61,961 nucleotides of DNA. Origin: a candidate division FCPU426 bacterium. GTDB taxonomy: Bacteria > Oederibacteriota > Muellerivitia > Muellerivitales > Muellerivitaceae. The position numbers and the translations under genes were made by a program. Each line of letters opens with the position of its first letter. Within the stretch, counting starts at the first letter, position 1. Shown here one piece after another: positions 18,510-37,251 of the stretch. Where the stretch lies: positions 1 through 61,961 of the forward strand of contig DAIDGV010000018.1 in NCBI GenBank assembly GCA_027452205.1. Reading direction: 5' to 3'. The notes below the pieces were generated by a model. It ran no database searches and was not told the origin of the DNA. It saw only the letters and a program-made list of their open reading frames with translations.

Positions 18510-21317
18510 TTACTTTGCCGAGCTCAACATGAAGAGATAATTGCGCAACATTTCACGCTGTTTTTCCGAGTTGCCGTGGAAATACTGCGGCACTGGGGAT
18601 TTGTCATCCGGTTGCGGCCAGAAAGCCGGCATGCGCACACCCGGGGACAAGGCATCCGGGTTCTTCAGCCAATCCAGCACCCATTCGGGTTTCAACCGTT
18701 CGTGGACCTTCAAAAGATCCGGCGCGGCGGTGGAAAGGTCCGCCGGCACTTGGCTGCCGAACACGTGACATTTCTTGCATTGCAGCTTGTCGAACATGGC
18801 CTTGGTCTGGGTCAAGTCGCTGGCGCTCAGTTTCGGAACATTGATCGTCTTGAAGGGGAAAGCTTGTTCATCTTCCTTCAAGTTGAAATAGGTGATGACT
18901 GCGTCGATCTTCTCGTCGGTCCAGGCAAAGCTGGGCATATGGATATGCAACCACGGACGGATGGGATGGACGTTCATCAGGAAGTCATGGAACCATTCCA
19001 CTTGAACCTTCGCGCCTTCCTTACGCAGGTTCGGCGGGGCTAAGGAAAGGTCAATCCCTTCTTTTTGGTACATTTCACGGATACGCCCACCTTGATCCTC
19101 GATCAAGTGACAGCCGCGGCAGTTGAAATCGAAGATCACCCGGCGGCCTTTTTCAAGCAAAGGACCGTTCCCATGAATACCAGCGGTCATTTCATCCGGC
19201 ACATAGGTATTGGTCAAACCCAGTACCGCTGTGACGATAGATTCGCGATCCTCGGGGCTCAAGTGGAAATTAGGCATCTTCAACTTGTCATTGAAGACAA
19301 CATCCTTGCCGTTATCGAATTGACGCGGATTTTCCAACTTGGCGTTCACAAAAGCCTCATGTGTATGAGGCAAGCCTGTCGTGCCGAAATCCAATTGGCT
19401 GACCTGCTTGGTACCCCAATCAGACAGTTCGGTACCGATGCCTTGAGCGGTCTCAAAGCCTTGGATCATATGGCAACCGAAACAACCATATTTGCTCAAG
19501 CTCTTCTGGCCCAGATATTGTTCCTTGGCTTTGTCATCCATTTGGGCCAACTGGGTCTTAGCGCCGTCGATACCGAATTGGACCTTCAAATAGTCCAAGA
19601 TGAGGGCGTCACGGACCGCCGGGTCCGCTTGCGGAGCGCTAGCTTCGTCGAAGGCCTTGTTTCTTTTGGACATCAAGTAAGCCGTCACATCAGCAGCCTC
19701 TTGATTGGTTAAACGCAGCACCGGCATGCGAGTATCCGGGTTGAAATGGCGCGGGTTCTTGATCCAGGTATAAATGAAGGCTGCGGACAGTTTGCTGCCC
19801 ACCGAGGACAGGTCCGGCGCGAAATCGGCGTGATGCGAGGTCACGTCATCGATACCATGGCAAGCCAAGCAGCCGATCTCTTTGAAAATCTTCTTGCCAT
19901 TGGCCACACTGCCGCCCGCAGGCGCCTCATTGGGCGTATAACCTTCCGAATGGGTGTAGAGATAACGGACAATCGAATGTAACTCCGCCTTGTTCCGGGC
20001 GAGGGAATCCGGATCCGAATTATTCGTTTGTTGGAAGAAGCTCGGCATCCTGGCTGCGGCATTATAGGACTTCGGGTCCCACACCCACTTCTCGACGAAC
20101 TCTTCTTTCAATTTGCCCTTCACCCTCACTAGACTGGGACCGGCCTTGGTCAGACCTTCGAGGTTTTTCACTTTGTGGCATCCCACGCAACCGCGGGTGA
20201 TCATCAATTCGCGGCCTCGATTCAATTTAGGCGCGAAGTTCACTTGTTCTTGGGTACCATGACACTTCAAGCAGGAACCTTCGGTGTACTTCAATGGCAA
20301 CATGGTGCTTTGCACACCTTCAGGTTGCTCCCAGTTGTACTTTTCTTTCCATAATTTCGCTTGTTCGTCGTCGTTCGGGACGTGAGCGCAAGTATTGAAA
20401 TCGGTGGCTTGTCCCATGCCGCCGTGACAAATGGTACAACCAATCTTTTCCAACGGGTGTGGACTAGACGAGCCAATATAGAGATCCAAGTTCGGATGGG
20501 TACGGAAAGGCTGCGGGGCGTTCTCGAAACCCTTCTTATCGATGGCCATGTGACAGGTCATGCAACGGTCGACCCGCATAGTCTTGGCGAAATACATATC
20601 CTCAGGCAAGTTCTTGAGGACCACTTGTTGGATCTGGATGGTCGGCGCCAAGAAGTCGAGCATCATGGCGTTGCGGAAATAAAAAAGGAAGCTAAAGGAG
20701 TTCTTATCGATCTTGGTCTTTAACTTGAGGAAGTCCGCTTCCATCTTGGCCAGGTTGCCCGCAACTTCATCCCGGCGGGCGTAGAGGGTGGATAAGTCCT
20801 TAGCGACCTGGTCCTTTTGTTGATTGAGTTCGAAAAGCTTTTGGGTATAAGCATTGGCTTGATCGGTTTCAGCATCGATCTTTTTCTTCAGGTTCTCGTT
20901 ATCTTTACCCTCTTCACTACGGGCCATGTAGGTATATTTGTCGGCGTCGATCTGGGCCTTCAGGGGCTGATAATCGACTGTTTTTACTTTATAGATTTGA
21001 TTGTCCAGGTCAGCGGATTGTTTGTTGAGCTTGGAGATCTCAGACTCATGGGTTTCCAGGTCTTTCTCGGCCTGCTTCTTGGCCTCGTATAGTTCCTTGA
21101 ACTTGGCCACATCGATGTCCGAAACCACATCCGGGACCTGCTCAATTGCCTGTTCCTTTTGCAACTGCATGAATTGGCGCTGATAGGCCTTCCAAGGACG
21201 ATTGTAGTCTTTCCAGACCATCAAGAAAACACAGATCAAAAGAAGTAACCCGGACCAAAGGAAGACCTTGGTCAGTGTTTTGCTGTTATACGCTCTTTCG
21301 TCTTTGAAGTCGGCCAA
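18510..21317 (-). CDS. Eight-haem c-type cytochrome subunit of a Rieske/cytochrome b complex
   Basis: A 935-residue protein. One N-terminal membrane helix (about 18-35) is followed by the motif WKDYNRPWKAYQRQF, a long coiled coil (about 65-205) and then eight CxxCH haem sites at residues 252, 294, 349, 377, 483, 612, 733 and 847. The last five are each followed 45-70 residues later by a Met-Pro pair preceded by Arg, Lys or His (near 423, 531, 681, 794, 896), the usual distal-ligand arrangement of class I cytochromes c; the first three lack this and are probably bis-His or otherwise ligated. The start is TTG 21317 after AAGGACAAAGCC. It lies 15 bases after the cytochrome b C-terminal gene, so it very likely replaces cytochrome c1/f. 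Confidence 0.92.
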   Translation of the reverse strand: MADFKDERAYNSKTLTKVFLWSGLLLLICVFLMVWKDYNRPWKAYQRQFMQLQKEQAIEQVPDVVSDIDVAKFKELYEAKKQAEKDLETHESEISKLNKQSADLDNQIYKVKTVDYQPLKAQIDADKYTYMARSEEGKDNENLKKKIDAETDQANAYTQKLFELNQQKDQVAKDLSTLYARRDEVAGNLAKMEADFLKLKTKIDKNSFSFLFYFRNAMMLDFLAPTIQIQQVVLKNLPEDMYFAKTMRVDRCMTCHMAIDKKGFENAPQPFRTHPNLDLYIGSSSPHPLEKIGCTICHGGMGQATDFNTCAHVPNDDEQAKLWKEKYNWEQPEGVQSTMLPLKYTEGSCLKCHGTQEQVNFAPKLNRGRELMITRGCVGCHKVKNLEGLTKAGPSLVRVKGKLKEEFVEKWVWDPKSYNAAARMPSFFQQTNNSDPDSLARNKAELHSIVRYLYTHSEGYTPNEAPAGGSVANGKKIFKEIGCLACHGIDDVTSHHADFAPDLSSVGSKLSAAFIYTWIKNPRHFNPDTRMPVLRLTNQEAADVTAYLMSKRNKAFDEASAPQADPAVRDALILDYLKVQFGIDGAKTQLAQMDDKAKEQYLGQKSLSKYGCFGCHMIQGFETAQGIGTELSDWGTKQVSQLDFGTTGLPHTHEAFVNAKLENPRQFDNGKDVVFNDKLKMPNFHLSPEDRESIVTAVLGLTNTYVPDEMTAGIHGNGPLLEKGRRVIFDFNCRGCHLIEDQGGRIREMYQKEGIDLSLAPPNLRKEGAKVQVEWFHDFLMNVHPIRPWLHIHMPSFAWTDEKIDAVITYFNLKEDEQAFPFKTINVPKLSASDLTQTKAMFDKLQCKKCHVFGSQVPADLSTAAPDLLKVHERLKPEWVLDWLKNPDALSPGVRMPAFWPQPDDKSPVPQYFHGNSEKQREMLRNYLFMLSSAK

Positions 21318-21332
21318 GGCTTTGTCCTTAAA

Positions 21333-22421
21333 TTAGATATTAAAGAAAAACTCAGGGATACCCACGATGTACTTCAGATTGAACACCCACCGAAGCACCA
21401 TCTTGATGGGCAGCGCAGCCATCAACAGCATCAGGAACATCAAAACGCCATAGCGGACCACGCCTAATTTTTCAAGAAGCTCCTGCAGCACAGGGACCTT
21501 CTTGGTCAGAAGCGGCGGCAGGCCGATCAGGTAGAAACCAATGACCAGGAAGCCCCAGATCTCCCGGAGGAACCAATTGGTCGGTAAACCAATGCCCAAG
21601 ATACGGACCCAAACATACTCGGAAAGGTTCACGTTGTTGAGCACAACCACCTTATGCGGGTCCCAGTTCTCGTAGGGACCAAAGAAGTTCCAGCCCGGGC
21701 CACGCATGAAGGTGCCCAGGAAGATCAAGGTAACCCAGAGAATGAAGAACCCGAAGAGGAACGGCACGATAGCGAAAGGCCGTTCGTTGAAGGTGTAATA
21801 GCCTGAACCCTTTGGATTCTTGTCGATATAAGGAATGGCCATCAGACCGATGATGATGAGCGTGGGGAAAACCACCCCGGCCAGCCAGGGATCGTAATAG
21901 ACGAGCATTTCTTGAAGGCCCAGGAAGTACCAAGGAGCCTTGGAAGGGTTCGGCGTCCAGGCTGGCGTCGCGGCTTCTTCCAGCGGCGCATGCAGGCAAA
22001 GGGACCAGATCAGCAACACCACGCCGCCGATGATGGTGGCGATGAACTCGATATAGACCAAATCCGGCCAGACATAGACTTTTTTATCGGAAGTTTCTTT
22101 TTCGACCGGAGGCTGTCCTTGGGCAATGCGGCGGTCATTCACCACTGCTTGGCGGAAAGACAACCAAGTGAAGAACCCCACGCCATAGACCATCAAGAAA
22201 ATAGGCACATTATCCGGCAAGGTGGCGATATCACGGAAATGAGTGCTATAGACCATCGAGAAAATGATGAATCCGATGGAGACCCAAAGGATCTTCACGG
22301 CAAAATCGGGTTCGGTCCACTTTTCCCGGTACTTGATCATGGCCCAAAAGCCGATCACGGAAAAAATAAAATAAGACCAAGGCTGAAGTACGAAATCGAT
22401 GGCATCAAGTATGTAATGCAT
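21333..22421 (-). CDS. Cytochrome b, C-terminal (subunit IV-like) subunit
   Basis: A 362-residue membrane protein with about eight or nine helices. The central part matches the C-terminal half of cytochrome b / b6f subunit IV: SKAPWYFLGLQEMLVYYDPW, then VVFPTLIIIGLMAIPYID and ERPFAIVPFLFGFFILWVT. The Qo-site PEWY motif of bc1 complexes appears as APWYF. It is longer than subunit IV (about 160 residues), with an extra three-helix N-terminal part before residue 130 and a C-terminal extension. It follows the cytochrome b6-like gene by 35 bases in the same operon. Confidence 0.9.
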   Translation of the reverse strand: MHYILDAIDFVLQPWSYFIFSVIGFWAMIKYREKWTEPDFAVKILWVSIGFIIFSMVYSTHFRDIATLPDNVPIFLMVYGVGFFTWLSFRQAVVNDRRIAQGQPPVEKETSDKKVYVWPDLVYIEFIATIIGGVVLLIWSLCLHAPLEEAATPAWTPNPSKAPWYFLGLQEMLVYYDPWLAGVVFPTLIIIGLMAIPYIDKNPKGSGYYTFNERPFAIVPFLFGFFILWVTLIFLGTFMRGPGWNFFGPYENWDPHKVVVLNNVNLSEYVWVRILGIGLPTNWFLREIWGFLVIGFYLIGLPPLLTKKVPVLQELLEKLGVVRYGVLMFLMLLMAALPIKMVLRWVFNLKYIVGIPEFFFNI

Positions 22422-22456
22422 GGTCCCTCAAATAACCTAAGTTTTTCCCTGGCCGA

Positions 22457-23287
22457 TCAGAGCGGGCCCGAGATACCGCCGTCCTTACGAACACGCCAAA
22501 AGTGAACGGCCATCAAAGTAGCCGCCACGATGGGCACGAACACACAATGCAACACGTAGAAACGAATGAGCGTCGCTTCCGAAACGAAATGGCCGCCAAG
22601 AAGGGCAAAGTGGATGTCGGATCCGCCGTGCACCAAATGCACCCCTCCGATCTGGATCATTGAGGCACCCGGACCTTCATAACCCATGAAAGGGGTGGCA
22701 CGGGCCATATTGGTGCCTACCGTGATGGCCCACATGGCTAATTGGTCCCAAGGCAAAAGGTAGCCGGTGAAGGACAAAAGAAGGGTCAAGACCAAGAGAA
22801 CAACACCAATGACCCAGTTGAATTCACGGGGCGGCTTATAGGAACCGGTCATGAATACACGGAACATATGGAGCCACACGGCGATGACCATGGCGTGGGC
22901 GCCCCAACGATGGATTTCGCGCATGATACCCAGAGGTACGTGTTCGCGAAGGGCCACGATGTCGTAATAAGCGTATTCCGCCGTCGGGCGGTAGTAGAAC
23001 ATCAACAAGATACCTGTCACGGTCAGGTTCAAGAACAGGAAAAACGAAAGCCCCCCCATGCACCAGGTATAGCTCATTTTCACGCCCGAATGACGGGCCT
23101 TGACCGGATGAAGATGCAAGAACACGTTGGAAAGGACCGCCATAACGCGATTACGCGGGGTATCTGGATAGCCGTGGCGAAAGATGGACTTCCAGATCTG
23201 GCCTTCAGCGATGTTCTGCTTGATGGCCTCAGGGGAGGGGGCATCGGCGAACTTTTCGGCGATCATTTTCTTCAATTTATCCAGCAT
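22457..23287 (-). CDS. Cytochrome b6-like subunit (N-terminal cytochrome b)
   Basis: A 276-residue four-helix di-haem protein. The two haem-ligand pairs are visible: [18 protein letters not shown] (His residues 14 apart) and [20 protein letters not shown] ending in a second His, with 14 residues between as in cytochrome b6 rather than 13 as in bc1. The Qi/Qo-facing [19 protein letters not shown] stretch is conserved. AAAGGATG precedes the start. It is the second gene of the Rieske operon. Confidence 0.95.
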
Positions 23288-23312
23288 GTCTCATCCTTTA
23301 ACGAAGTTGGGA

Positions 23313-24068
23313 TCAGCCTTTGTAATTCAAATAAGAGCCAGGGAGACCCCATTGGCCCAATTCATATTGGTACTTAATGCTCTGGTCGATCTGGATCTGA
23401 CCGTCATCGGCCAGGGTGATATTGAAGCGTTCTAAGGGCCGGGGAGCCGGACCTTCGAAATTGATACCGGTAATGTAGTAACCGCTGCCATGGCAAGGAC
23501 ATTTGAATTTTTGTTCGGCCTGTAGCCAGTTCGGGGTACAACCCAAATGGGTACAAATGGTGGAAAGAACATAGAAACCAGTGGCTTCACGAACAACCCA
23601 AACCCTATGGGACGATTTGAACCGTTCATCCACTCCAATTGCGTAGGTGTTGGGGAACCCCGCCGCGAACTTCAGCGGGGGTTCAAAGGTCACGTTGGGG
23701 AAAAGGAACCGAACAACACCGCTCACCGCGCCCAAAGAAGCGGCAGTAAAGGCCACCCAGGCCCAACCCAAAAGAGACAAGAAGGAACGCCGGTTGAGGG
23801 AGGGATCCATCGCGCCATGTTCGATCTCAGCTTCATGCGCGTGGACTTCTTTGGCTTCTTGATAGGAATGCCATAACCACTTGATCGTAAGGACTAGGAC
23901 ATAAACGCCTAAAGAAACAAGAGCGATGAAACCAAAATTGATGATAAGGGAGCTGAATTCAATGGAGGGATTGGCGTTCGTTTCCTGCGCGAAGGAAACC
24001 CCTTGGGTTAAAAAGACCGCTAAAGCAGTAGAAGGAAAACGATATCGTTTCGCACAACGAGGGTTCAT
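23313..24068 (-). CDS. Rieske iron-sulfur protein with extended membrane N-terminus
   Basis: The [2Fe-2S] subunit of the quinol-oxidising complex. Cluster ligands are complete: CTHLGC (about residues 172-177) and CPCHGS (190-195). Ahead of the Rieske domain lies a Tat-like RRSFLSLLGWAWV helix, and ahead of that an extra signal-like segment and a second hydrophobic helix (about 38-65) joined by a charged His/Glu linker. I choose ATG 24068 because GGAGC lies eight bases upstream and a signal-like sequence follows; the frame stays open further upstream without a good site. Starting at the later Met of MDPSLNRRSFL would give a normal Rieske N-terminus. First gene of the complex operon. Confidence 0.93.
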   Translation of the reverse strand: MNPRCAKRYRFPSTALAVFLTQGVSFAQETNANPSIEFSSLIINFGFIALVSLGVYVLVLTIKWLWHSYQEAKEVHAHEAEIEHGAMDPSLNRRSFLSLLGWAWVAFTAASLGAVSGVVRFLFPNVTFEPPLKFAAGFPNTYAIGVDERFKSSHRVWVVREATGFYVLSTICTHLGCTPNWLQAEQKFKCPCHGSGYYITGINFEGPAPRPLERFNITLADDGQIQIDQSIKYQYELGQWGLPGSYLNYKG

Positions 24069-24156
24069 GCAAATCGCTCCGGAAAGACACGAGATTTTAT
24101 CAGGACAAAAGTAGCGCTCCCCGAGAAGAGAGCGAACGATGCTGAAAACAGGCCGT

Positions 24157-24186
24157 ATTCTAGACAAAGGAACGGGAATGGGTCAA
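24157..24186 (-). promoter_or_regulatory. Sigma-70-type promoter for the Rieske/cytochrome b operon
   Basis: On the minus strand TTGACC and TAGAAT are separated by 18 bases, about 90 bases ahead of the Rieske start. It is the best sigma-70-like match I found in the window. Confidence 0.7.
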
Positions 24187-24265: not shown

Positions 24266-26863
24266 TCACTTTAAAACCAATACTTTTAAAACCGTCGAGA
24301 AAGTAGAGCCGCCTGTCACACGGATCCTCACATAATAAAGACCGTTCGCGACAGGTATACCCATCCGGTCATTCAAGTCCCAAAGTACCGTGGTAGTCAC
24401 ACCGCTCGGATTGTAGTCATGCTCCGAAACCTTGCGGAAAGCCGTGGTAAAGACCTCCATGTGGATGACACAAGGGCTGGGTGGCGTGATGACATCCACC
24501 TTTAAGGGCGCGCCTGTTACCGGGTTGGGATAGGGCTTCGAGCAGGTCACATGATCGACCGTGGTGGCCGTCGGAGTTTGGGTCACTGTCGCCGTGAAGG
24601 TGACTGTGGGGGTGTGAGTGACCGTGGCGGTCAAGGTCACCGTCGCGGTGCCGGTTTGGGTCGAAGTGACCGTTGCCGTTGACGTGGTGGTGGCGGTATT
24701 CACGGGAACCTTCGTGTTGGTCGAAGTATCCGTCGCTGTTTGGGTCGAAGAGGCCGTACTGGTAGGCGTAGAAGTTGATGTCGAAGTGGCTGACGCCGTA
24801 GAGGTCCGGGTTTGGGTGTTCGTGACCGTGGCGGTATTGGTATTCGTAGCGGTGTTCAAGACCCCGGTGGCGGTATTCGTGACCGTAGCGGTTTGAGTGG
24901 AGCTTTGGGTCATCGTCTGGGTCTGGGTAGCCGTATTGACCACCGGTACCGTGTTGGTAGAAGTTGCGGTATTCAATACACCTGTCGCCGTATTGGTTTG
25001 AGTATGGGTCACCGTGGAAGTGGACGTAAAGGTCGGGGTGTTCAACCCAGTGGTATTGGTGGCCGTGGAGCTGTTGGTCGCTGTTGCCGTATTCGCCAAG
25101 GGCGTTGAGGAATTCGTTGCGGTATAGGTTTCCGTGGCGGTATTTGACAAGGGGGTCGCCGAACTGGTGGCGGTCGCCGTATTGGCCAGGGGGGTGCTGG
25201 TCATGGTCGCCGTATGGGTTTGAGTAAAGGTCGAGGTTACCGCCACCGTGTTAGTGGAGGTCTCTGTCATCGTATTCGTTTGAGTGGCCGTATGGGTAGC
25301 CGTGGGAGGCGGAGGCGTCGAAGTAGACGTAGAGGTCTGGGTGCGGGTAACCGTGTTCGTGGTCGTCGCCGTAGGAGGCGGCGGGGTATTCGTGCTGGTC
25401 GAAGTCTGAGTACGGGTAACCGTATTGGTGGAAGTCGCCGTCGAGGGTGGGGGTGTGCTGGTATTCGTGGACGTCGCGGTGTTCGCGCTGCCGCTCAGGG
25501 GACAGGTCGATCCCCAGGTGTGGTTGTTCGAGATATGGGTCCTAAAGAATCCCCCGTCATCGTCCACCACCGGGCTACCGGTCCAACTGCCCGCGCCGCT
25601 GTTTCCGGACCCATCCTGTTGGGACGCGCTGCCGGTGTAGTTGGCCGGGTAAAAAAAATCCATCACATCGGTACAGTGATAATCACCAGGGCCCCATAGC
25701 ACTCCCATGCAACCACTGTTCACGTAAAGACAAATGTTGTGGCTGTACCCCGCCGTGTTCAGCGGTGAATCGTTCAAGAAATACTCGGGTCGGGTATCCG
25801 TGTAATGCCCCAGCACATTGTTCATTTTGGAATTGCCTTCTGGCACCTGCCACAACATGCACCGTAGGGAAACATCCGCTGTCAGGTCATTGAGCCAATT
25901 GGCATATTGCTGGGCCATGGCCCCGCCGGTGTCCCAATTATAGGTAGCTTGATAGCCGCCGTCATAACCCGAGGGATCGGTGAAAAATAGGTCCCAGGTG
26001 CTTCCGCTGGCAGGTTTACAAGCATTCAGGAAGGTCGCGATACTGCTGGCGTGGGCCGATAATGCCCCAGCGCTCATTCCACTAGTCGCCGCGGGATTCG
26101 GACTTACCGCCCAACCTGAAACGTGGAAGGCGATCTTTAAGTTCGCCCTGTTCCCTGCCGAAATTTCCTGGTCCTTCAAATAAAGCATCGCCTGGCAATA
26201 ACCCGCCAAGGTATTCGGAAAACTAGACAAGGAAACCCAAGGGCTAGAGCAGGAAGGTTGCGCCGCCGAGGCCACCGACACCGTATAGCTGCTGGGTGAA
26301 CCACCGCCCTGCTGGATGGTGCCGAACATATCGGGTTCAATATCGACGGTCACCACCTTACCCGAGTGGGCGTTCATCCAAGTATTGATCTGGATGAGGA
26401 ACTGTTCCCAATCCTGGTAATACTCGCCCATAAAGGACGTGCTGGTCATACTGCTGATATAGACCCCGCCGATCTGGTAATAGATGAAGATCGGTTGCAA
26501 TCCCGCCCCATTGGCCAAGTTAGCGAAATTGCCTACTGACCCGCCACTACCGGGATATTGGTTGTACCAACCCGATCCGGTGCAAGCTAATCCGCCTTCG
26601 AGGTAACGATAGACCGCGTCCCAGTTCGAGGCGCCTGTCGGCACCATGTATTGCGAAACGGTGTTCACTTCCGCGTTGACGCCGAGGCCATAACTATTGA
26701 GGGCGTCCTGATAATCATCGTCCACCAACCCCATCATGAAGGAAGACGGATAACCTGATGGAACAGTGCCTCCCATAGCCCACAAATGGTCCGCCGCCAA
26801 AGGAGTCAGTAAGATCAGCAGCAAAGAAAAGAAGTGGATTTTTTCGATTACGAAACGTTTCAA
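24266..26863 (-). CDS. Large secreted protein: glycosidase-like domain, Thr-rich linker, FlgD-like C-terminal domain
   Basis: An 865-residue exported protein. After a signal peptide (about 1-29) comes a domain of about 425 residues with alternating strand-like motifs IFIYYQIG, VVTVDIEPD (174-178 DIEPD), KIAFHVSGWAV, LFFTDPSGYDG and CMLWQVPEGNSKM, reminiscent of a TIM-barrel glycosidase, but I cannot name a GH family. Residues about 460-768 are a Thr/Asn/Ser/Ala-rich tract with units such as TNTATVTNT, probably a glycosylated spacer. The last 97 residues (KPYPNPVTGAPL ... GLYYVRIRVTGG ... KVLVLK) form a FlgD/T9SS-tail-like beta module. The start is TTG 26863 after GGAGACGAC. A full-length paralog lies at 30471-32906. 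Confidence 0.8.
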   Translation of the reverse strand: MKRFVIEKIHFFSLLLILLTPLAADHLWAMGGTVPSGYPSSFMMGLVDDDYQDALNSYGLGVNAEVNTVSQYMVPTGASNWDAVYRYLEGGLACTGSGWYNQYPGSGGSVGNFANLANGAGLQPIFIYYQIGGVYISSMTSTSFMGEYYQDWEQFLIQINTWMNAHSGKVVTVDIEPDMFGTIQQGGGSPSSYTVSVASAAQPSCSSPWVSLSSFPNTLAGYCQAMLYLKDQEISAGNRANLKIAFHVSGWAVSPNPAATSGMSAGALSAHASSIATFLNACKPASGSTWDLFFTDPSGYDGGYQATYNWDTGGAMAQQYANWLNDLTADVSLRCMLWQVPEGNSKMNNVLGHYTDTRPEYFLNDSPLNTAGYSHNICLYVNSGCMGVLWGPGDYHCTDVMDFFYPANYTGSASQQDGSGNSGAGSWTGSPVVDDDGGFFRTHISNNHTWGSTCPLSGSANTATSTNTSTPPPSTATSTNTVTRTQTSTSTNTPPPPTATTTNTVTRTQTSTSTSTPPPPTATHTATQTNTMTETSTNTVAVTSTFTQTHTATMTSTPLANTATATSSATPLSNTATETYTATNSSTPLANTATATNSSTATNTTGLNTPTFTSTSTVTHTQTNTATGVLNTATSTNTVPVVNTATQTQTMTQSSTQTATVTNTATGVLNTATNTNTATVTNTQTRTSTASATSTSTSTPTSTASSTQTATDTSTNTKVPVNTATTTSTATVTSTQTGTATVTLTATVTHTPTVTFTATVTQTPTATTVDHVTCSKPYPNPVTGAPLKVDVITPPSPCVIHMEVFTTAFRKVSEHDYNPSGVTTTVLWDLNDRMGIPVANGLYYVRIRVTGGSTFSTVLKVLVLK

Positions 26864-27003
26864 GTCGTCTCCGAAAAGGCAAAGCTTCGCCGGGCGATGG
26901 ATAAAAAAGCGCGTGCGTAAATAATATCAGCCTTTTTTCAGCGCAGCCCCTTCAGTACTGGACAAAATCGATACGGCAAAAGTTAAACGGGTTTTCCTTG
27001 GCA

Positions 27004-27015
27004 AAAAGCGCTTTT
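27004..27015. promoter_or_regulatory. A/T-flanked palindrome between divergent genes
   Basis: Perfect 12-bp palindrome AAAAGCGCTTTT, about 140 bases before the Thr-linker gene start and about 115 before the divergent membrane protein gene. A similar palindrome precedes the paralog (33059). Operator function is a guess. Confidence 0.35.
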
Positions 27016-27129
27016 ATTTTTTGCCATTCTTATAAAAATTTTACGCCCGTTCCAAAAGGCCCTTTTTATCCCTATTTTCACTCGCGCCTTCCTCGTTGTC
27101 TTTTCATCCCTTCCCCGCATAATGACCCC

Positions 27130-29556
27130 ATGATTCAACCGCCTCGATCTTCCCTCCTCGCCCTTTTTCTCGTCTCCGCGGCCGCCTTGGGGTTCGAGAT
27201 CCAGCTCACCCGCTATTTCGCCATCGCCAGTTGGTCCGAGTACGGTTATTGGATCATCTCTATCGTTATGGTGGGCTTATCCCTCAGTGGCGTGGCCCTC
27301 AGCTTGGCCAATCATTTTTTCCTCAAGCGGGGCGCCTTTTTGCTCGCGGTCATTCCCGGCGGCCTCATGCTCTCTGCCGCGCTGGGTTATTGGGCGGTTA
27401 CCCTTATTTCCTTCAATCCCTTGGAATTCCAAAATCATGAGCTGTGGCAAGGCCAATTGCTCTGCGTGGGCCAATACTATTTGGTCCTATTCCCTTTTTT
27501 CTTTTTGTCAGGGCTTTATATCGGTTTGAACTTCATTCTTTATCCCCGGTCCGTTGCCCAGGTCTATGCCTTCGATCTTTTAGGGGCCGCCGCGGGGTCT
27601 TTGGGCCTGATCTTGCTCATGTTCGTCCTTCACCCCTTTCAATTACTGCCGGCCCTCTTGCCTTTATTGCTGCTCGCCGGGTGGGTGGGTTCGCCCAAAT
27701 GTTCTTTTAAGATCCTGAGTCTCGCTCTCTTTTTGATCAGTGAAGGGAGCGCCTTTTATTTGAACCAAGCGGACTACTGCCAGTACAAGCCTATCTATCC
27801 GCCCCTGCACGTGGAAGGCACCCGGGTGTTGGAGGAACATTTCTCACCCCGGGGTTTGGACACGGTCTTGGATAACTTCACCGAACGTCTCGATATCGAC
27901 CTGTCCAACAATTACAGCCTGTTAAAGGTCAGCGGCCCGCCCGCCGCTTGTGGTCTTTACCGGGACGGAAATCGGCTGGAATCCCTTCCGAAGAACAACA
28001 CCCTTCCGGCCAATTACGCCAAAGCCTCCTTGGACATCCTGCCCTATTTTTTACGTCCGGGCGCCAAGACCTTGGTCATCGGCACCCGGGGTGGTTTCAA
28101 GGTCCCGGAAATTTTTTCCGTCGGGGTTTCCCAAGCCGTCGCCTTGGAATCCGACCCGGTCCTTTATCATTTCGTTTCCGACCCAACTCGTTATGGCGGG
28201 GCCTGGTTCAACCAGCCCGGGATGACCCTGCTGGACCAGAAACCCTTGCCTTATTTAAAAGGGACCGCCGAGACCTTCGACATCATTGATCTGTCGGCGG
28301 AATTCCTCGACCAGGGCCAAACCAACCGCTTGGCCTTTACCCAGCAGGCCTTGCAAGAGGACTTCCGCCACCTGAAACCCGGCGGCATGCTTTCGATCCC
28401 CTCTTCCATCCGGGAACTTACGGTCTATGCCTTGAAGACCCTGGAAAGCGCCAGGGAAGCCTTGACCAACTTGGGCGTTTCCCGTCCCGAGGACCATCTT
28501 CTTTTATATCGGTCCGCCTGGAGCACTCGGCTCTTGGTCTTCAAGGACCCCCTGACCCCCTTGGACCTCAAAAAGATCCAGGCTTTCTGTTCCGACCGGT
28601 CTTTCGATATCTCCTATTACTCGACCCTTCGACCGGGCAAGCAGGAAATTTGGAACGAGATCCCGCCGATGTCCTTTGATGGCCCTTCGAAACATTCCCG
28701 TTCCCAAGAAACTCAAGATGCCCTAAGGGACGACTGCTTAAAGTTGTTCTCCGACCCCTCTTTCAAGGGCAGTTATTTTTTCAATCTGGCCCCTTCAACC
28801 TACGACCGGCCTTTCTTTTATTCGGTGCTGCGGCTTTCTCGTTTGAAAGACCTTTGGCGACAGCTGTCCCTGATCCCCCGGGAAGAGATCGGTTACCTGG
28901 TCAATCTGGCGGTCTTGGTCCAGTCCCTTTTGTTCTCCGCGCTCATCCTATTGTTGCCCTGGTTCTTCCTCTCCCGCGCTGACGCCAAACCCCGGGGCGT
29001 CCGATTCCTGCTTTATTTCCCCGCCTTGGGCCTGGGATTCCTCTTTATAGAGATCTATCTGATCGAAAAAGCCTCGTTCCTTTTGGGGGACCAGACCCTG
29101 GCTTTTTCCGGCGTGCTGGGCGGCATGCTGTTCTTTTCCGGCTTGGGCAGTTGGTTCTCGGGGCGCTATCAGAAACCCGCTCAAGCTCTGCGGCTGGCGA
29201 TGGGGCTGGCCTTGGCTTGGTTCCTTTCGGCCTGGTTCTTCATCGATCCCCTCTTCGCCATCCTTTTGCCCTGGAGCACCCCGGTCAAATGCTTATTGCT
29301 CTTGGTCCTTCTCGCGCCGCTCTCTTTCGCGCTCGGCATGCCTTTCGCTTTGGGATTGAGCTCCTTGGAAAAAAAGAATACCGCCTTGTTACCCTGGGCC
29401 TGGGCCCTCAACGGGGCCTTTTCCGTGATCGCCACACCTTTGGCCAACATCCTGGCGGTGTCCGGTGGTTTTAGTCGTTTGCTCTGGGGCGGTCTGTTAC
29501 TATACGTTATCGTTTGGCTGACATTCCCACAGCATCCCGAAAAAGGCAGCGCATGA
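27130..29556 (+). CDS. Spermidine-synthase-like polytopic membrane protein
   Basis: An 808-residue protein with three parts: about six membrane helices, a soluble Rossmann-like domain, and about six more helices. The soluble part has KTLVIGTRGGFKVPEIFS, an acidic residue at the end of the next strand (AVALESD) and FDIIDLSAEF, the order seen in spermidine synthases and related methyltransferases, though the Gly-rich loop is degenerate. This layout matches the known group of fused membrane spermidine-synthase-like proteins, whose reactions are mostly unknown. I start at ATG 27130; the frame is open further upstream but that part is non-coding in style. Its stop overlaps the start of the exported isoaspartate methyltransferase gene (ATGA). 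Confidence 0.8.
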   Translation: MIQPPRSSLLALFLVSAAALGFEIQLTRYFAIASWSEYGYWIISIVMVGLSLSGVALSLANHFFLKRGAFLLAVIPGGLMLSAALGYWAVTLISFNPLEFQNHELWQGQLLCVGQYYLVLFPFFFLSGLYIGLNFILYPRSVAQVYAFDLLGAAAGSLGLILLMFVLHPFQLLPALLPLLLLAGWVGSPKCSFKILSLALFLISEGSAFYLNQADYCQYKPIYPPLHVEGTRVLEEHFSPRGLDTVLDNFTERLDIDLSNNYSLLKVSGPPAACGLYRDGNRLESLPKNNTLPANYAKASLDILPYFLRPGAKTLVIGTRGGFKVPEIFSVGVSQAVALESDPVLYHFVSDPTRYGGAWFNQPGMTLLDQKPLPYLKGTAETFDIIDLSAEFLDQGQTNRLAFTQQALQEDFRHLKPGGMLSIPSSIRELTVYALKTLESAREALTNLGVSRPEDHLLLYRSAWSTRLLVFKDPLTPLDLKKIQAFCSDRSFDISYYSTLRPGKQEIWNEIPPMSFDGPSKHSRSQETQDALRDDCLKLFSDPSFKGSYFFNLAPSTYDRPFFYSVLRLSRLKDLWRQLSLIPREEIGYLVNLAVLVQSLLFSALILLLPWFFLSRADAKPRGVRFLLYFPALGLGFLFIEIYLIEKASFLLGDQTLAFSGVLGGMLFFSGLGSWFSGRYQKPAQALRLAMGLALAWFLSAWFFIDPLFAILLPWSTPVKCLLLLVLLAPLSFALGMPFALGLSSLEKKNTALLPWAWALNGAFSVIATPLANILAVSGGFSRLLWGGLLLYVIVWLTFPQHPEKGSA

Positions 29557-30467
29557 AGTTCGGTTTTTACACGATCCTTTTCCTCGGTCTTATCCATTTC
29601 GCCCTAGCGAACCCAACTCCCGTTCCCAGTCCCACTTCCACGCCCCTGGTATGGAACTTCAAGGCCTATCTTTCCACCTTTAAAGCCGGCGGCCGCCGGA
29701 CCCAATTGACCCAAAAGAAGTTCGACCATGTCGTCGAGAAGCGCCTTGCCGCCATGGACAATTTGAAGGGCTACATGATGGACCGCGCGGGTGAGATGAA
29801 CCCCGACATCTTCAAGGCCTTTTGTGACGTGCCCCGGGAATATTTTCACTACGATTACCAAAAAAAGATGGCCTTCTCGGCCAGCGCTTATGACTGGCCC
29901 GCCCGGCCCTGGGCCATCGGTTATGGTTCCGCCCTAAGCGATTATCCCGGCCAGATCTATATGATCCAATTGGCCGAGCCCGAACCCACCGACACGGTCC
30001 TGGAGATCGGCACCGGCAGCGGTTACAACATCGCCTTGCTCTCGCGCTTGGTGAAAGAGGCTTATTCCATCGAGATCATCAAGCCCTTGGGCAACCAGGT
30101 CGCGAAGATCTTCAAACCCCTCGGCTTCAACAATATTCACACCAAGGTGGGTGACGGTTATTACGGGTGGGACAGCGTGAAGGGCGGGTTCGATATCATC
30201 GTCGTCACTTGCGCGGCCCAATTCGTGCCGCCCGCTTTGTTGCAACAGTTGAAGCCCCATGGCCGCATGATCATCCCCATCGGCCAGCCTTTCCGGGGCC
30301 AGCAGGTGCTTTATGTTTATACGAAGGATTCCCAGGGCAAGGTCCATTGCCGTAAGGATGTCGGGGTATTCTTCATTCCCATGACAGGCCAGATGCAAAA
30401 AGAATCGCCCATCGCCTCTCCCGGGCCCATGCCCACGATCGAATCCGCCAAAGAATCCGACCAGTAG
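29553..30467 (+). CDS. Exported protein-L-isoaspartate O-methyltransferase-like protein
   Basis: A 304-residue protein with an N-terminal signal peptide (MKFGFYTILFLGLIHFALA) and a Pro/Thr linker before the PCMT fold. Family features: the region SALSDYPGQIYMIQL corresponding to the TIS-P motif, SAM-binding motif I VLEIGTGSGYNIALLS, FDIIVVTCAA and LKPHGRMIIPIG. PCMT enzymes methylate isoaspartyl residues in aged proteins using SAM. Export is odd because SAM is not expected outside the cytoplasm. The ATG overlaps the stop of the membrane protein gene, so the two are co-translated and probably work together. Confidence 0.85.
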   Translation: MKFGFYTILFLGLIHFALANPTPVPSPTSTPLVWNFKAYLSTFKAGGRRTQLTQKKFDHVVEKRLAAMDNLKGYMMDRAGEMNPDIFKAFCDVPREYFHYDYQKKMAFSASAYDWPARPWAIGYGSALSDYPGQIYMIQLAEPEPTDTVLEIGTGSGYNIALLSRLVKEAYSIEIIKPLGNQVAKIFKPLGFNNIHTKVGDGYYGWDSVKGGFDIIVVTCAAQFVPPALLQQLKPHGRMIIPIGQPFRGQQVLYVYTKDSQGKVHCRKDVGVFFIPMTGQMQKESPIASPGPMPTIESAKESDQ

Positions 30468-30470
30468 CCT

Positions 30471-32906
30471 TCAACGCCGTATGAAAATGACCCGGGCCAA
30501 GACCCGCCGGGTCGGCCCCGTCATATAGATCACATAGACCCCCGAAGCGCAAATGGCGTTATATCGGTTCCTTCCATCCCAGCTATAGGTCTGCGCAAAA
30601 GCCTCCGTTAAGTCCTTATGGTCCAATTTTTTCACCAATTCTCCCGCTGAATTATAAATGCTCAGGTCATAGCCGCCTGGATAACGGTCGATGGCCACCG
30701 AGATCGAGACCGGCGAATCGTTCGAAAAAACGTTCTGGGAGACGAAGAACCGTTCGGGACCCACCGTCGGGGTAAAGGTGAACGTAAACGGCATCGTGGA
30801 AGTGCCTGTCAGGGTCGGGCTGGCGGTGGCCGTCCAGGTCGCGGTCGAAACCACAAAAACAGGGGTCCGGGTATTCGTCGCGGTTCCTGTGGGCACACTG
30901 GTCGATGTTCCTGTCGCCGTCGCAACCCCGGTGGAACTACTGGTCGCCGTAGCGGTCAAGGTGGCCGTCAAACTCGCCGTCGAGGTCGATAAGCCGGTGC
31001 TGGTCGAGGTGGACGAAGCGGTCATTGTCGCGGTCACAGCCAAGGTTGAGGAGGAAGTCTCGGTCAGCGTTGGCGTATTGGTGATGACCTTCGTGACTGT
31101 ATTTGTCTCGGTGGCAGTACTGGTACCGGTAGCGCTGGATGAAGCGGTTGCCGTTAGCGTAGTGGTGGAGCTAGAAGTCGCTGTGTCCGCTAGGGTATTC
31201 GTCGAAGTATTGGTCATCGAACAAGTGGGTGTCGAGGTTGGGCTCTGGGTGGCGGTTTGAGTCGCGGTGTTGGTCGTGGTATTCGTGGCCGTATTCGTCG
31301 GGGTTTGGGTCGAGCTGTTCGTGACGGTCTTGGTATTGGTGACAGAAGAGGTGCTGGTATTGGTGGCGCTGGCGGTCGGGCTGTTGGTCACTGTGGAAGT
31401 AGCGCTGTTCGTGACCGTGTAAGTCACCGTATTGGTAGCCGTACTGGTCCCGGTAGCCGTAGCGGTGTTGGTCGCTCCGCATTGGGAAGCCCACAAATGG
31501 GCATTGGCCGCGTGGCTTCGCATGAACCCGCCGTCGTTATCGATGACCGCCGGGACCGTCCAGCTGCCGGAACCCCCGTTGGCCGTGCCGTCCTCGGTCC
31601 AGGAACTATAGAGCATATCTTCCACGCTGGTACTGCTGGTGATGCTCCCTGCGCCCCAAAGGATGCCGATGATGCCCGAGGCCATGTATTGGCAAACGTT
31701 ATGAGCGTAACCCTGGTCGTTCAGCGGCGAGTCCGCTAAGAAATACTCAGGTCTCTCGTCCTTATAGTGCCCATTCACATCGGCCATTTTGGAATTACCC
31801 AAGGGCATCTGCCACAAGATGCCCCGCAAGTTCGTCAGCGTGGAAAGTTGGTTCACGAAATAAGCGTATTGGTCGGCGATCCCCACCACCCCGCCCACAC
31901 CCCAGTCATAAACATTCGGCGGTCCCCCTACCACCGGGTTATGCCCGTCATAACCGGAGGGGTCCGTGAAGAAAAGGTCGAACTGGCTGCCTGTGGCCGG
32001 CTGGCAAGCGTTCACAAAACTAGAGATCGTCTGCGCCCGGGCCGCCACCGTGGCCAGCGGATAGGGGTAACCGGTATTGGCCGCCGGGTTGCCATTGACC
32101 GCCCAGTTGGAGATATGAAAAGCGATATGGACCCGGCTGTTATTGGCCGGTGATACGACCTGGTCCTTGATATGGAGTACCGCCGCGCAATAGCCCTGGA
32201 AGTTATTGGCGTAACCCGTCAGGGGCACCCAAGCCGGACAACCCGGCGCCGCCAGGGCCGGCGAAGGTACCGTACAGTTAGCCACGTTCATGGGGAAAAG
32301 GGTCGGTCCGAAGCCGGGATAAATATTGCTTTGCTCGACCGAACCCGAAAAATCCGGCTCCAGGTCCACTGTCACCACCGGCGTATAACCCGCGGTGGCA
32401 TTGGCGGTCATCCACTGGTCGATCAGGTACATGGTATAGGTCCAGTCCTGATAATAAAGGCCCATCCCCACCGGGTCGTTCGGTGAAGTGCCTCCCTCGC
32501 CCAAGGCCTCGTTGCCGATCTGGTAATAGATGAAGACCGGTTCATAGTTGTATTGTTTGCAAAGGTCCGCGTGATGTTTGAGTACATAACCCGCGCCCAA
32601 GGGCGAGTTGGACCAGCCGTTGCCGCCGGTCGTGCCGCCGGAGTAATAACCCGCGTTCAAGTAACGATAGGACATATCGAAAGCGCTGCCGCCCACCGGC
32701 CCTTCCCAAGTGTTCAAGGTATAGACCTGGGCGTTGATACCGTAACCATACTCGTTGTTCACGTCTGGAAAATAATTGGACACCATGCCCATCAAGAAGG
32801 TGTTTGGGTAACCATTGGGCACCACACCGCCCATGGCCCAAAGATCGATTTTAGGTGAGATCAAAAGAAATAAAAAAATGAGGGCGAAGGAAACGAAACT
32901 CTTCAA
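30471..32906 (-). CDS. Large secreted protein, paralog of the 24266-26863 product
   Basis: An 811-residue protein with the same plan: signal peptide (about 1-25), N-terminal domain with shared motifs NGYPNTFLMGMV, FIYYQIGNE, VVTVDLEPD (181-185 DLEPD), HIAFHISNWAV, LFFTDPSGYDG and ILWQMPLGNSKM, a Thr/Ser/Ala-rich linker (about 480-714), then a 97-residue beta module (YDLSIYNSAGELVKKL ... SGVYVIYMTG ... RVIFIRR). The DxEPD pair is the best candidate active-site acid region. The start is TTG. It converges with the isoaspartate methyltransferase gene with a three-base gap. Function unknown; extracellular carbohydrate or cell-surface work is the likeliest. Confidence 0.8.
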   Translation of the reverse strand: MKSFVSFALIFLFLLISPKIDLWAMGGVVPNGYPNTFLMGMVSNYFPDVNNEYGYGINAQVYTLNTWEGPVGGSAFDMSYRYLNAGYYSGGTTGGNGWSNSPLGAGYVLKHHADLCKQYNYEPVFIYYQIGNEALGEGGTSPNDPVGMGLYYQDWTYTMYLIDQWMTANATAGYTPVVTVDLEPDFSGSVEQSNIYPGFGPTLFPMNVANCTVPSPALAAPGCPAWVPLTGYANNFQGYCAAVLHIKDQVVSPANNSRVHIAFHISNWAVNGNPAANTGYPYPLATVAARAQTISSFVNACQPATGSQFDLFFTDPSGYDGHNPVVGGPPNVYDWGVGGVVGIADQYAYFVNQLSTLTNLRGILWQMPLGNSKMADVNGHYKDERPEYFLADSPLNDQGYAHNVCQYMASGIIGILWGAGSITSSTSVEDMLYSSWTEDGTANGGSGSWTVPAVIDNDGGFMRSHAANAHLWASQCGATNTATATGTSTATNTVTYTVTNSATSTVTNSPTASATNTSTSSVTNTKTVTNSSTQTPTNTATNTTTNTATQTATQSPTSTPTCSMTNTSTNTLADTATSSSTTTLTATASSSATGTSTATETNTVTKVITNTPTLTETSSSTLAVTATMTASSTSTSTGLSTSTASLTATLTATATSSSTGVATATGTSTSVPTGTATNTRTPVFVVSTATWTATASPTLTGTSTMPFTFTFTPTVGPERFFVSQNVFSNDSPVSISVAIDRYPGGYDLSIYNSAGELVKKLDHKDLTEAFAQTYSWDGRNRYNAICASGVYVIYMTGPTRRVLARVIFIRR

Positions 32907-35933: not shown

Positions 35934-37244
35934 TTGAAAAAGCGAATCCTCCTGATCCTGCTCTTCCTGTCCCTGTTGGCCTTCCGCACTTTTTTTGGTT
36001 TTTCCCAATCTTTCTTTTTCCCGGATGAGCTGCAGACCTACTTGATCGGTCTCAGGACCTATTGTGAGCACACCTGGCCCTTCTTCGGTCCGGACCTGAT
36101 CGTGACCGAGACCGGTTTCTATACTCAATTGCCCGGCGCACTGGAAGGCATATTGGTCGGCGGTCCTCTTTTTATCTGGCCCGTTCCTGAAGCGCCTTTC
36201 ATCCTCTTGAACATCCTCTCGCTCATCGCCCTGGCGATGCTGGCCAACTACATCTCAAAGCGGGTCACACAGATCCCCTTTTGGTTCACCTTCGCCTGGC
36301 TGGCTCTTTTGCCCTGGAACCTGCACGAATCGACCAACATCATCAACCCTTCCTGGCTCTTGTTCGGCAGCACCTTCTTTTTTATCGGCTTCCTGGAAGC
36401 TTTTCCCGAGACCAGTTTGGGCCTTTGGGAACCCTGGTCTGCCTTCGCGGCCATGGGTTTTGGGTTTTTTTGGGACATGCAGTTCCATTTTTCCTGGATC
36501 CTCTTGCCACCCTTCATCCTGCTGGCGTTCCTTTGGCGCCTTTGGCGCAAGTCGGGACAATTCCTCCAAACTCTGGGCGGCCTTTATCTCGGCTCCATGA
36601 TCTCCGGCGCCTTTTTGCTCTCGACTTGGACCACCTTCGGTTTTGGCGGCATGGGCAAGGGCATGAACCTTTCCGTACCCTTCAGTCAGGATAACTTTTT
36701 GGCCTTCTTCACGATCCTGGCCCGTTATTTTTCCCTGGTCTCTTATGAGATACCCCGTTTCCTCGGACTTAATACCGCTGAAAGGATCAAAGCCGTCACC
36801 GACTATCCCCTCATGCTGGTCCCGGCGGTCTTCTTGTTGATCGTGGGGATCGTTCAGCCCTTGGTACTTCTAGGGATGGGCTTCAAAAAAGATGGTCTAC
36901 ACAAGGACGGCCGGGCCCTGACCCGGCTCACCTTTGGCGCCTTCTTCCTGGTCTGGATCAGTTTTTGGTTCACCGACAAAGACCCTTACGCCCACATCTA
37001 TTACATCCTGCTACCCCTCATCGCCGTTTATTCGTTCTATATTTGGGACCGCTTGGCGGTGAACAAGTTCTTCCGCATCTTCGGTGTGATCTGCCTCTTC
37101 GCCAGTCTTTGGTTCCAAGCCGTCCATCTTTTCCAACAAATGCCCAACGGATCGCTTTATTCGAACCGGGCCAAGGTGGCCCAATCTATCGACCAAAAGA
37201 ATTATCACCTCTTGGGTGAACGCCGCCCTGGGAGCCACAACTAA
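35934..37244 (+). CDS. GT-C-type polytopic membrane protein (putative glycosyltransferase), copy 2
   Basis: A 436-residue paralog of the preceding product. Shared blocks include DELQTYLIGLRTYCEHTWPF, LPGALEGILVG, PVPEAPFILLNILS, ESTNIINPSW and HIYYILLPL, and the C-terminus LGERRPGSHN parallels LGDRRSGSLY. The start is TTG 35934 after AAAGGG. The acidic residue of the first loop is kept (PDELQ), so both copies may be active, perhaps on different acceptors. It lies 17 bases after copy 1 and seven before the GH44 gene. Confidence 0.7.
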   Translation: MKKRILLILLFLSLLAFRTFFGFSQSFFFPDELQTYLIGLRTYCEHTWPFFGPDLIVTETGFYTQLPGALEGILVGGPLFIWPVPEAPFILLNILSLIALAMLANYISKRVTQIPFWFTFAWLALLPWNLHESTNIINPSWLLFGSTFFFIGFLEAFPETSLGLWEPWSAFAAMGFGFFWDMQFHFSWILLPPFILLAFLWRLWRKSGQFLQTLGGLYLGSMISGAFLLSTWTTFGFGGMGKGMNLSVPFSQDNFLAFFTILARYFSLVSYEIPRFLGLNTAERIKAVTDYPLMLVPAVFLLIVGIVQPLVLLGMGFKKDGLHKDGRALTRLTFGAFFLVWISFWFTDKDPYAHIYYILLPLIAVYSFYIWDRLAVNKFFRIFGVICLFASLWFQAVHLFQQMPNGSLYSNRAKVAQSIDQKNYHLLGERRPGSHN

Positions 37245-37251
37245 GGGACCT

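What the first reader, a model, noticed from the sequence alone, without database searches (positions are those of the whole stretch)
24266..32906. Two secreted paralogs with a possible unnamed glycosidase domain and 230-310-residue Thr-rich linkers
Seen: both share FIYYQIG, VVTVD-x-EPD, AFH-x-S-x-WAV, LFFTDPSGYDG and WQ-x-P-x-GNSKM blocks in the same order, then Thr/Asn/Ser tracts and a 97-residue C-terminal beta module. Known: EPD-type acidic pairs and barrel-like strand order occur in glycosidases, but no GH family fits. Inference: a new extracellular enzyme family.
Basis: partly seen in the sequence, partly recalled or inferred. Interest (0 to 1): 0.65.

Follow-up and report, generated by a model that had tools for sequence, protein, structure and literature searches.

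The report
Secreted enzymes distantly related to cellulases
Two neighbouring genes of an uncultured Goldbacteria-type bacterium encode secreted proteins of a widespread but unnamed family that appears to be a distant relative of the GH6 cellulases, keeping their acid residue and active-site tyrosine but not their usual base, so they are probably polysaccharide-cutting enzymes with a re-arranged active site.

Summary
ORFs 24266-26863(-) and 30471-32906(-) are paralogs (48% identical over the N-terminal ~430 residues). All five named blocks occur in the stated order, followed by Thr-rich linkers and C-terminal beta modules. Pfam and NCBIfam name nothing in them. The domain defines a family found here in Goldbacteria/FCPU426, Myxococcota, Streptomyces, Variovorax and a few weaker hits. 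The EPD Asp is kept in 23 of 23 diverse members, its Glu in 22. The best supported relationship is to GH6 cellulases. A family profile against all PDB sequences puts GH6 first (E 7e-5, 0.0024, 0.037). Profile-profile score is 57.6, against 20.3 for the best shuffled control and 19.9 for GH5. The five best Foldseek matches of the better model are GH6 endoglucanases. The EPD Asp lines up with the GH6 catalytic acid and Tyr129 with the GH6 active-site Tyr. The GH6 Arg-Asp-Cys base motif is missing in 45 of 45 members, so this is not GH6 itself. Relatives are fused to CBM2 plus GH8, CBM5/12, a GDSL esterase or ricin lectin; a GH44 gene lies 4.3 kb away. Most likely: a secreted, probably inverting beta-glucan-type glycosidase family, new at family level. 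Activity and substrate are untested.

The parts
24266..26863 (-). ORF1, 865 aa secreted protein (TTG start, signal peptide, GH6-related domain, Thr-rich linker, C-terminal module)
   Evidence: GGAG ribosome-binding-like motif just upstream of the TTG
25499..26779 (-). ORF1 catalytic-like domain, residues ~29-455
   Evidence: family alignment A6, AF2 model, profile match to GH6
26330..26338 (-). ORF1 E176-P177-D178; D178 = proposed general acid
   Evidence: D 23/23, E 22/23 in 23 diverse members; aligned to GH6 EPD in PDB chains
25958..25978 (-). ORF1 DPSGYDG 296-302; D301 invariant, candidate catalytic base or helper
   Evidence: D301 23/23; D/E296 22/23
25832..25852 (-). ORF1 WQVPEGN 338-344
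   Evidence: W, Q, P and first G invariant 23/23
24515..25492 (-). ORF1 Thr-rich linker
24266..24514 (-). ORF1 C-terminal beta module (Por_Secre_tail-like / FlgD-Ig-like), plus stop codon
   Evidence: module repeated across the genome; weak Por_Secre_tail scores in proteins sharing it
30471..32906 (-). ORF2, 811 aa paralog
31482..32837 (-). ORF2 catalytic-like domain, residues ~24-475
32352..32360 (-). ORF2 E183-P184-D185 (general-acid motif)
31947..31964 (-). ORF2 DPSGYD 315-320 (D320 = ORF1 D301)
31794..31814 (-). ORF2 WQMPLGN 365-371
30783..31481 (-). ORF2 Thr-rich linker
30471..30782 (-). ORF2 C-terminal beta module (different subtype from ORF1), plus stop codon
37216..38817 (+). nearby secreted GH44 enzyme (context, not part of the pair)
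   Evidence: PF12891 E=7.7e-64

Best explanation
Each protein is exported by a signal peptide and carries an N-terminal (beta/alpha)-barrel of about 430 residues, a distant relative of the GH6 cellulase fold. It probably hydrolyses a beta-linked polysaccharide (cellulose or another beta-glucan most likely, chitin or hemicellulose possible). Proposed chemistry, inferred: D178 of the EPD motif, at the end of a central barrel strand, donates the proton to the leaving group as D221 does in Trichoderma Cel6A. Y129 shapes the -1 sugar as Y169 does there. A water attacks in an inverting reaction. The GH6 base D175 is absent, so the proton is probably taken up by another conserved acid, most likely invariant D301 (with D/E296 or D356 as alternatives). 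The Thr-rich linker spaces the barrel from a C-terminal Por/FlgD-like module that serves as a general export or surface-anchoring tail in this bacterium. Shown here: paralogy, family, conservation, remote homology to GH6, domain fusions. Inferred: activity, substrate, inversion, role of each acid, role of the tail.
For: Profile of 23 diverse members against all PDB sequences: GH6 structures rank first (5jx5 7.1e-5, 6fao 0.0024, 1tml 0.037; 1up0 1.1), aligned through the EPD motif. hhalign to GH6: probability 92%, score 57.6; 40 column-shuffled controls at most 20.3, reversed 16.3, GH5 19.9. Foldseek of model mfc115108f083 (pTM 0.74, relative L034): ranks 1-5 are GH6 endoglucanases, E 5e-5 to 1.2e-4, probability 1.0; the model of the window protein itself has 5jx5 at rank 2. 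Invariant acids D178 and D301 and Y129. GH6 roles of D221, D175 and Y169: PMC6091422. Fusions: CBM2 + domain + Calx-beta + GH8 (L026), CBM5/12 + fn3 (L070), GDSL esterase (L066), ricin lectin (L098). GH44 gene in the window. Tail-sharing proteins include GH76, a GDSL hydrolase and CBM5/12. Goldbacteria are reported as cellulose degraders (PMC7031533).
Against: The sequence link to GH6 is significant mainly over the strands around EPD (112 columns); the C-terminal half does not align convincingly. Foldseek TM-scores are low (0.30-0.45), and other glycosidase barrels (GH26, GH39, GH53) and even a lyase are close behind. The models rest on 12 sequences, with poorly predicted stretches. The GH6 base motif RDC is absent and the base is not identified. 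This genome has no GH9, no GH6 and one marginal GH5-like hit, so a cellulose diet is not evident.
Confidence: 0.64

Rival explanations
1. A clan GH-A type retaining glycosidase (GH26/GH39/GH53/GH5-like barrel), with E176 of EPD as acid/base at the end of strand 4.
For: Foldseek also returns GH26 lichenase, PslG (GH39) and GH53 with E about 1e-4; the better model has eight strands with EPD after strand 4.
Against: No conserved Glu at strand 7, where the nucleophile would sit: that position is invariant Trp-Gln. Profile score against GH5 is at noise level (19.9 vs 57.6 for GH6). One family member has Asn for E176, while the Asp is never lost.
Confidence: 0.1
2. A non-catalytic, degenerate barrel used for polysaccharide binding or adhesion.
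For: GH6 base motif missing; long Thr-rich linker and surface-type tail.
Against: Polar and acidic residues are among the most strictly kept positions (D178, D301, W338-Q339) across several phyla; a degenerate barrel would be expected to lose them. Relatives already carry separate binding modules.
Confidence: 0.11
3. An ordinary member of GH6.
For: Significant remote similarity and the shared EPD motif.
Against: Pfam GH6 does not reach its cut-off in any member (best E 0.0081 in a single one of 23). GH6 base motif absent in 45/45; both GH6 signature patterns (from memory) absent in 45/45, though present in 9 and 3 of 13 genuine GH6. No acid six residues after the Tyr in the 22 members that have it.
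Confidence: 0.03
4. A carbohydrate-active enzyme of a different activity, for example on bacterial exopolysaccharide, peptidoglycan-type glycans or alpha-linked glycans.
For: Family is frequent in Myxococcota, many of which are predators (general knowledge); the genome's other tail proteins include GH76, an alpha-mannanase family; no strong cellulase set in this genome.
Against: Fusion to CBM2 plus GH8, CBM5/12 and a nearby GH44 point to beta-1,4-linked glucan or chitin-like substrates.
Confidence: 0.12

Closest known systems
GH6 cellulases (Pfam PF01341; T. fusca Cel6A 1tml/2bod, M. tuberculosis Cel6 1up0, Orpinomyces 5jx5, T. reesei Cel6A)
   Same: Barrel fold in predicted models, strand-Tyr and [I/V]EPD motifs in register, first in profile and fold searches
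   Different: No RDC base motif, C-terminal half not alignable with confidence, 9-15% identity in fold alignments
GH26 / GH39 / GH53 barrels (clan GH-A)
   Same: Barrel fold with a catalytic acid after strand 4; Foldseek hits
   Different: No strand-7 Glu nucleophile; for the GH5 control no profile similarity; GH26/39/53 profiles were not tested
Unnamed homologs in Myxococcota, Streptomyces (WP_329468313.1, annotated only 'RICIN domain-containing protein') and Variovorax
   Same: Same family with the invariant residues
   Different: Other accessory domains; in the examples read no Thr-rich linker of this length
T9SS Por_Secre_tail / FlgD-Ig C-terminal modules
   Same: Short C-terminal beta module; proteins of this genome sharing it score weakly with PF18962; a SprA-like gene is present
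   Different: The ORF1 tail itself gives no Pfam hit; the SprA-like hit of this genome is below the curated cut-off

Membership tests
GH6 (CAZy / PF01341) | Match to PF01341 over the curated score | tested here: not met
   Window proteins 0 hits; best of 23 members E=0.0081, one member only; L026 14.7 bits against cut-off 27
GH6 (CAZy / PF01341) | Catalytic acid Asp in EPD at the end of a barrel strand | tested here: met
   D178 23/23; aligned to EPD of 5jx5, 6fao, 1tml
GH6 (CAZy / PF01341) | Active-site Tyr (TrCel6A Y169) | tested here: met
   Y129 22/22, aligned to the GH6 Tyr
GH6 (CAZy / PF01341) | Base Asp (TrCel6A D175) in a Y-x(5)-D, RDC motif | tested here: not met
   0/45 RDC; no D/E at +6 in the 22 members with the Tyr
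GH6 (CAZy / PF01341) | GH6-type barrel fold | tested here: inconclusive
   Predicted models match GH6 first or second but with TM about 0.30-0.45
GH6 (CAZy / PF01341) | Inverting hydrolysis of beta-1,4-glucan | not testable with these tools
   needs an enzyme assay
Clan GH-A | Glu acid/base after strand 4 and Glu nucleophile after strand 7 | tested here: not met
   Strand-7 position is invariant W-Q; no conserved Glu there
GH5 (PF00150) | Profile similarity | tested here: not met
   hhalign probability 0.5%, score at shuffled level
T9SS cargo (TIGR04183 / PF18962 tail) | Tail over the curated score | tested here: not met
   Window tail: no Pfam hit; relatives in the phylum up to 20.0 of 23 bits with TIGR04183
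T9SS cargo (TIGR04183 / PF18962 tail) | Secretion machinery in the genome | tested here: inconclusive
   SprA-like 2028-aa frame, E=3.4e-37, below cut-off

The most novel reading that the evidence does not exclude
A new CAZy-level glycoside hydrolase family, spread over several bacterial phyla, that shares ancestry with GH6 but has moved its catalytic base from the loop after the Tyr-bearing strand (D175 in Cel6A) to an invariant Asp after a later strand (D301), giving a natural case of base relocation in an inverting cellulase-type barrel.
Probability: 0.35. Interest if true: 0.68.

Novelty: new variant of a known kind. Interest (0 to 1): 0.5.

Why it matters
No Pfam, NCBIfam or PDB entry names this family, yet it was found in 72 of 193 Myxococcota-phylum genomes sampled and in 12 of the 45 sampled genomes of the window's own phylum, the window's included, so many genomes may carry unrecognised glycosidases. 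The identity of the base in GH6 was long disputed (PMC6091422). A sister family that keeps the acid and loses that base gives a natural test of which residue can do the job.

Tried and rejected
Pfam and NCBIfam on both proteins: nothing. First genome-contig scan with the single protein found no relatives; the alignment query found ten. A 9-member profile against PDB gave nothing, while the 7-member profile gave GH6 at 0.012 and the 23-member one gave 7e-5; I rely on the last together with independent tests. Viral-contig scans found no relatives. phmmer of a myxococcal member against PDB: noise only. A flagellin and a dynein-lid hit were discarded as isolated weak matches outside any pattern. 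2-methylisocitrate lyase as top Foldseek hit of the first, poorer model was discarded: no sequence support, rmsd 11.7 A, and it dropped behind GH6 in the better model. Literature searches found no description of a GH6-related new family; only open-licence papers are held, and CAZy itself could not be searched. The GH6 signature patterns were written from memory.

Full report
Observation. Both ORFs are real and intact. The N-terminal domains are 48% identical and their alignment score lies far outside the shuffled distribution (975 against at most -14). Only these two copies exist in the 2.89 Mb genome. The linker is about 335 residues in ORF1 and 238 in ORF2, 39-41% Thr. The C-terminal modules are about 82 and 103 residues and not of one type.

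Host. Relatives found by DNA pattern carry names such as candidate division FCPU426 and Candidatus Goldiibacteriota, and the search of whole genomes puts those genomes in the same phylum, so the window comes from a Goldbacteria-type bacterium. Goldbacteria have been caught on cellulose particles and have active GH9 cellulases (PMC7031533). This genome, however, has no GH9, no GH6 and one marginal GH5-like hit, which scores better as GH72/GH2.

Family. Single-sequence search finds the domain in 11 genomes of the phylum, the window's included. The Streptomyces homolog is annotated only for its ricin domain. Iterated profile search over held sequences converges at 45 members at E<1e-5 without pulling in any GH6.

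Conservation. In 23 diverse members the fully invariant positions include P177, D178, G221, W251, D301, W338, Q339, P341, G343 and G393 (ORF1 numbering). Nearly invariant are Y87, W99, Y129, E176, D291, acidic 296 and D356.

Relationship. Several lines point to GH6. (a) Profile against all PDB sequences: GH6 structures rank first at E 7.1e-5, 0.0024 and 0.037. (b) hhalign against 13 GH6 sequences: probability 92%, score 57.6; column-shuffled controls at most 20.3, reversed 16.3, GH5 19.9. (c) Foldseek: model of relative L034, pTM 0.74, top five hits all GH6 endoglucanases; model of the window protein, pTM 0.68, GH6 5jx5 second with E 3.3e-5. (d) The best Pfam hint among the members scanned is GH6. 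The models are of moderate confidence and TM-scores are low, so (c) is supporting only.

Active site. In the PDB alignments the family's EPD lies on the GH6 EPD, whose Asp (TrCel6A D221) is the experimentally confirmed catalytic acid, and Y129 lies on the GH6 Tyr that puckers the -1 sugar. The proposed GH6 base D175, six residues after that Tyr in an RDC motif, is absent: no RDC in 45 members and no acid at +6 in any of the 22 members that have the Tyr. The remaining invariant acid near a strand end is D301, with D/E296 and D356 close behind. This makes D178 as acid well supported by homology, and D301 as base a hypothesis.

Function hints. A planctomycete-like relative (taxon guessed from the sequence) is a single polypeptide of CBM2, this domain, Calx-beta and the start of GH8 (L026). 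Others carry CBM5/12 and fn3 (L070), a GDSL esterase (L066), a mannanase-type galactose-binding-like module (L065, below cut-off) or ricin lectin (L098). A GH44 gene (PF12891, 7.7e-64) lies 4.3 kb beyond ORF2 in the window. Proteins in this genome that share the Thr-rich linker and tail include GH76, GDSL hydrolase and CBM5/12 proteins.

Tail. Tail-like matches occur at 19 places in this genome at E<=0.001. Proteins sharing it score weakly as Por_Secre_tail, and a SprA-like gene is present below cut-off. A T9SS-like export route is plausible, not shown.

Verdict. A real, conserved, secreted protein family, best read as a family of glycosidases sharing ancestry with GH6 but with a different base. 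It is not GH6 by its defining residues. Novel at family level as far as the held libraries go; the chemistry is an informed inference.

Noticed in passing
window 37216-38817 (+): Secreted GH44 family enzyme (PF12891, E=7.7e-64) close to the two paralogs.
   Followed up: yes
G000 contigs C21, C23, C2, C3, C24, C26 (loci L106-L116, L120-L124): Many large secreted proteins share the Thr-rich linker and C-terminal module, several clustered on C21 and C23; domains include GH76, GDSL hydrolase, CBM5/12, Kelch repeats and a GH72/GH2-like barrel.
   Followed up: partly
L026:1-3276 (-): Planctomycete-like polypeptide with CBM2, the EPD domain, Calx-beta and the start of a GH8 domain: a possible two-enzyme cellulase.
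   Followed up: partly
L067 1951-4856 (-): Another genome (G410, 2.7 Mb, same family-level group as the myxococcal hits) has two copies of the domain in tandem, plus a third copy fused to a GDSL esterase on another contig (L066).
   Followed up: no
window 26998-30467 (+): Between the paralogs, on the opposite strand, lie a membrane protein (spermidine-synthase-like by eye; no Pfam hit at E<=0.01) and a PCMT protein-repair methyltransferase (PF01135).
   Followed up: partly
window 18510-24167 (-): By eye, a cytochrome b/Rieske-type complex with a 935-aa multi-haem (CxxCH-rich) cytochrome, suggesting respiratory metabolism.
   Followed up: no
L028:307-2448 (+): A DUF4214 protein with a divergent copy of the domain in which EPD reads NPD.
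   Followed up: partly
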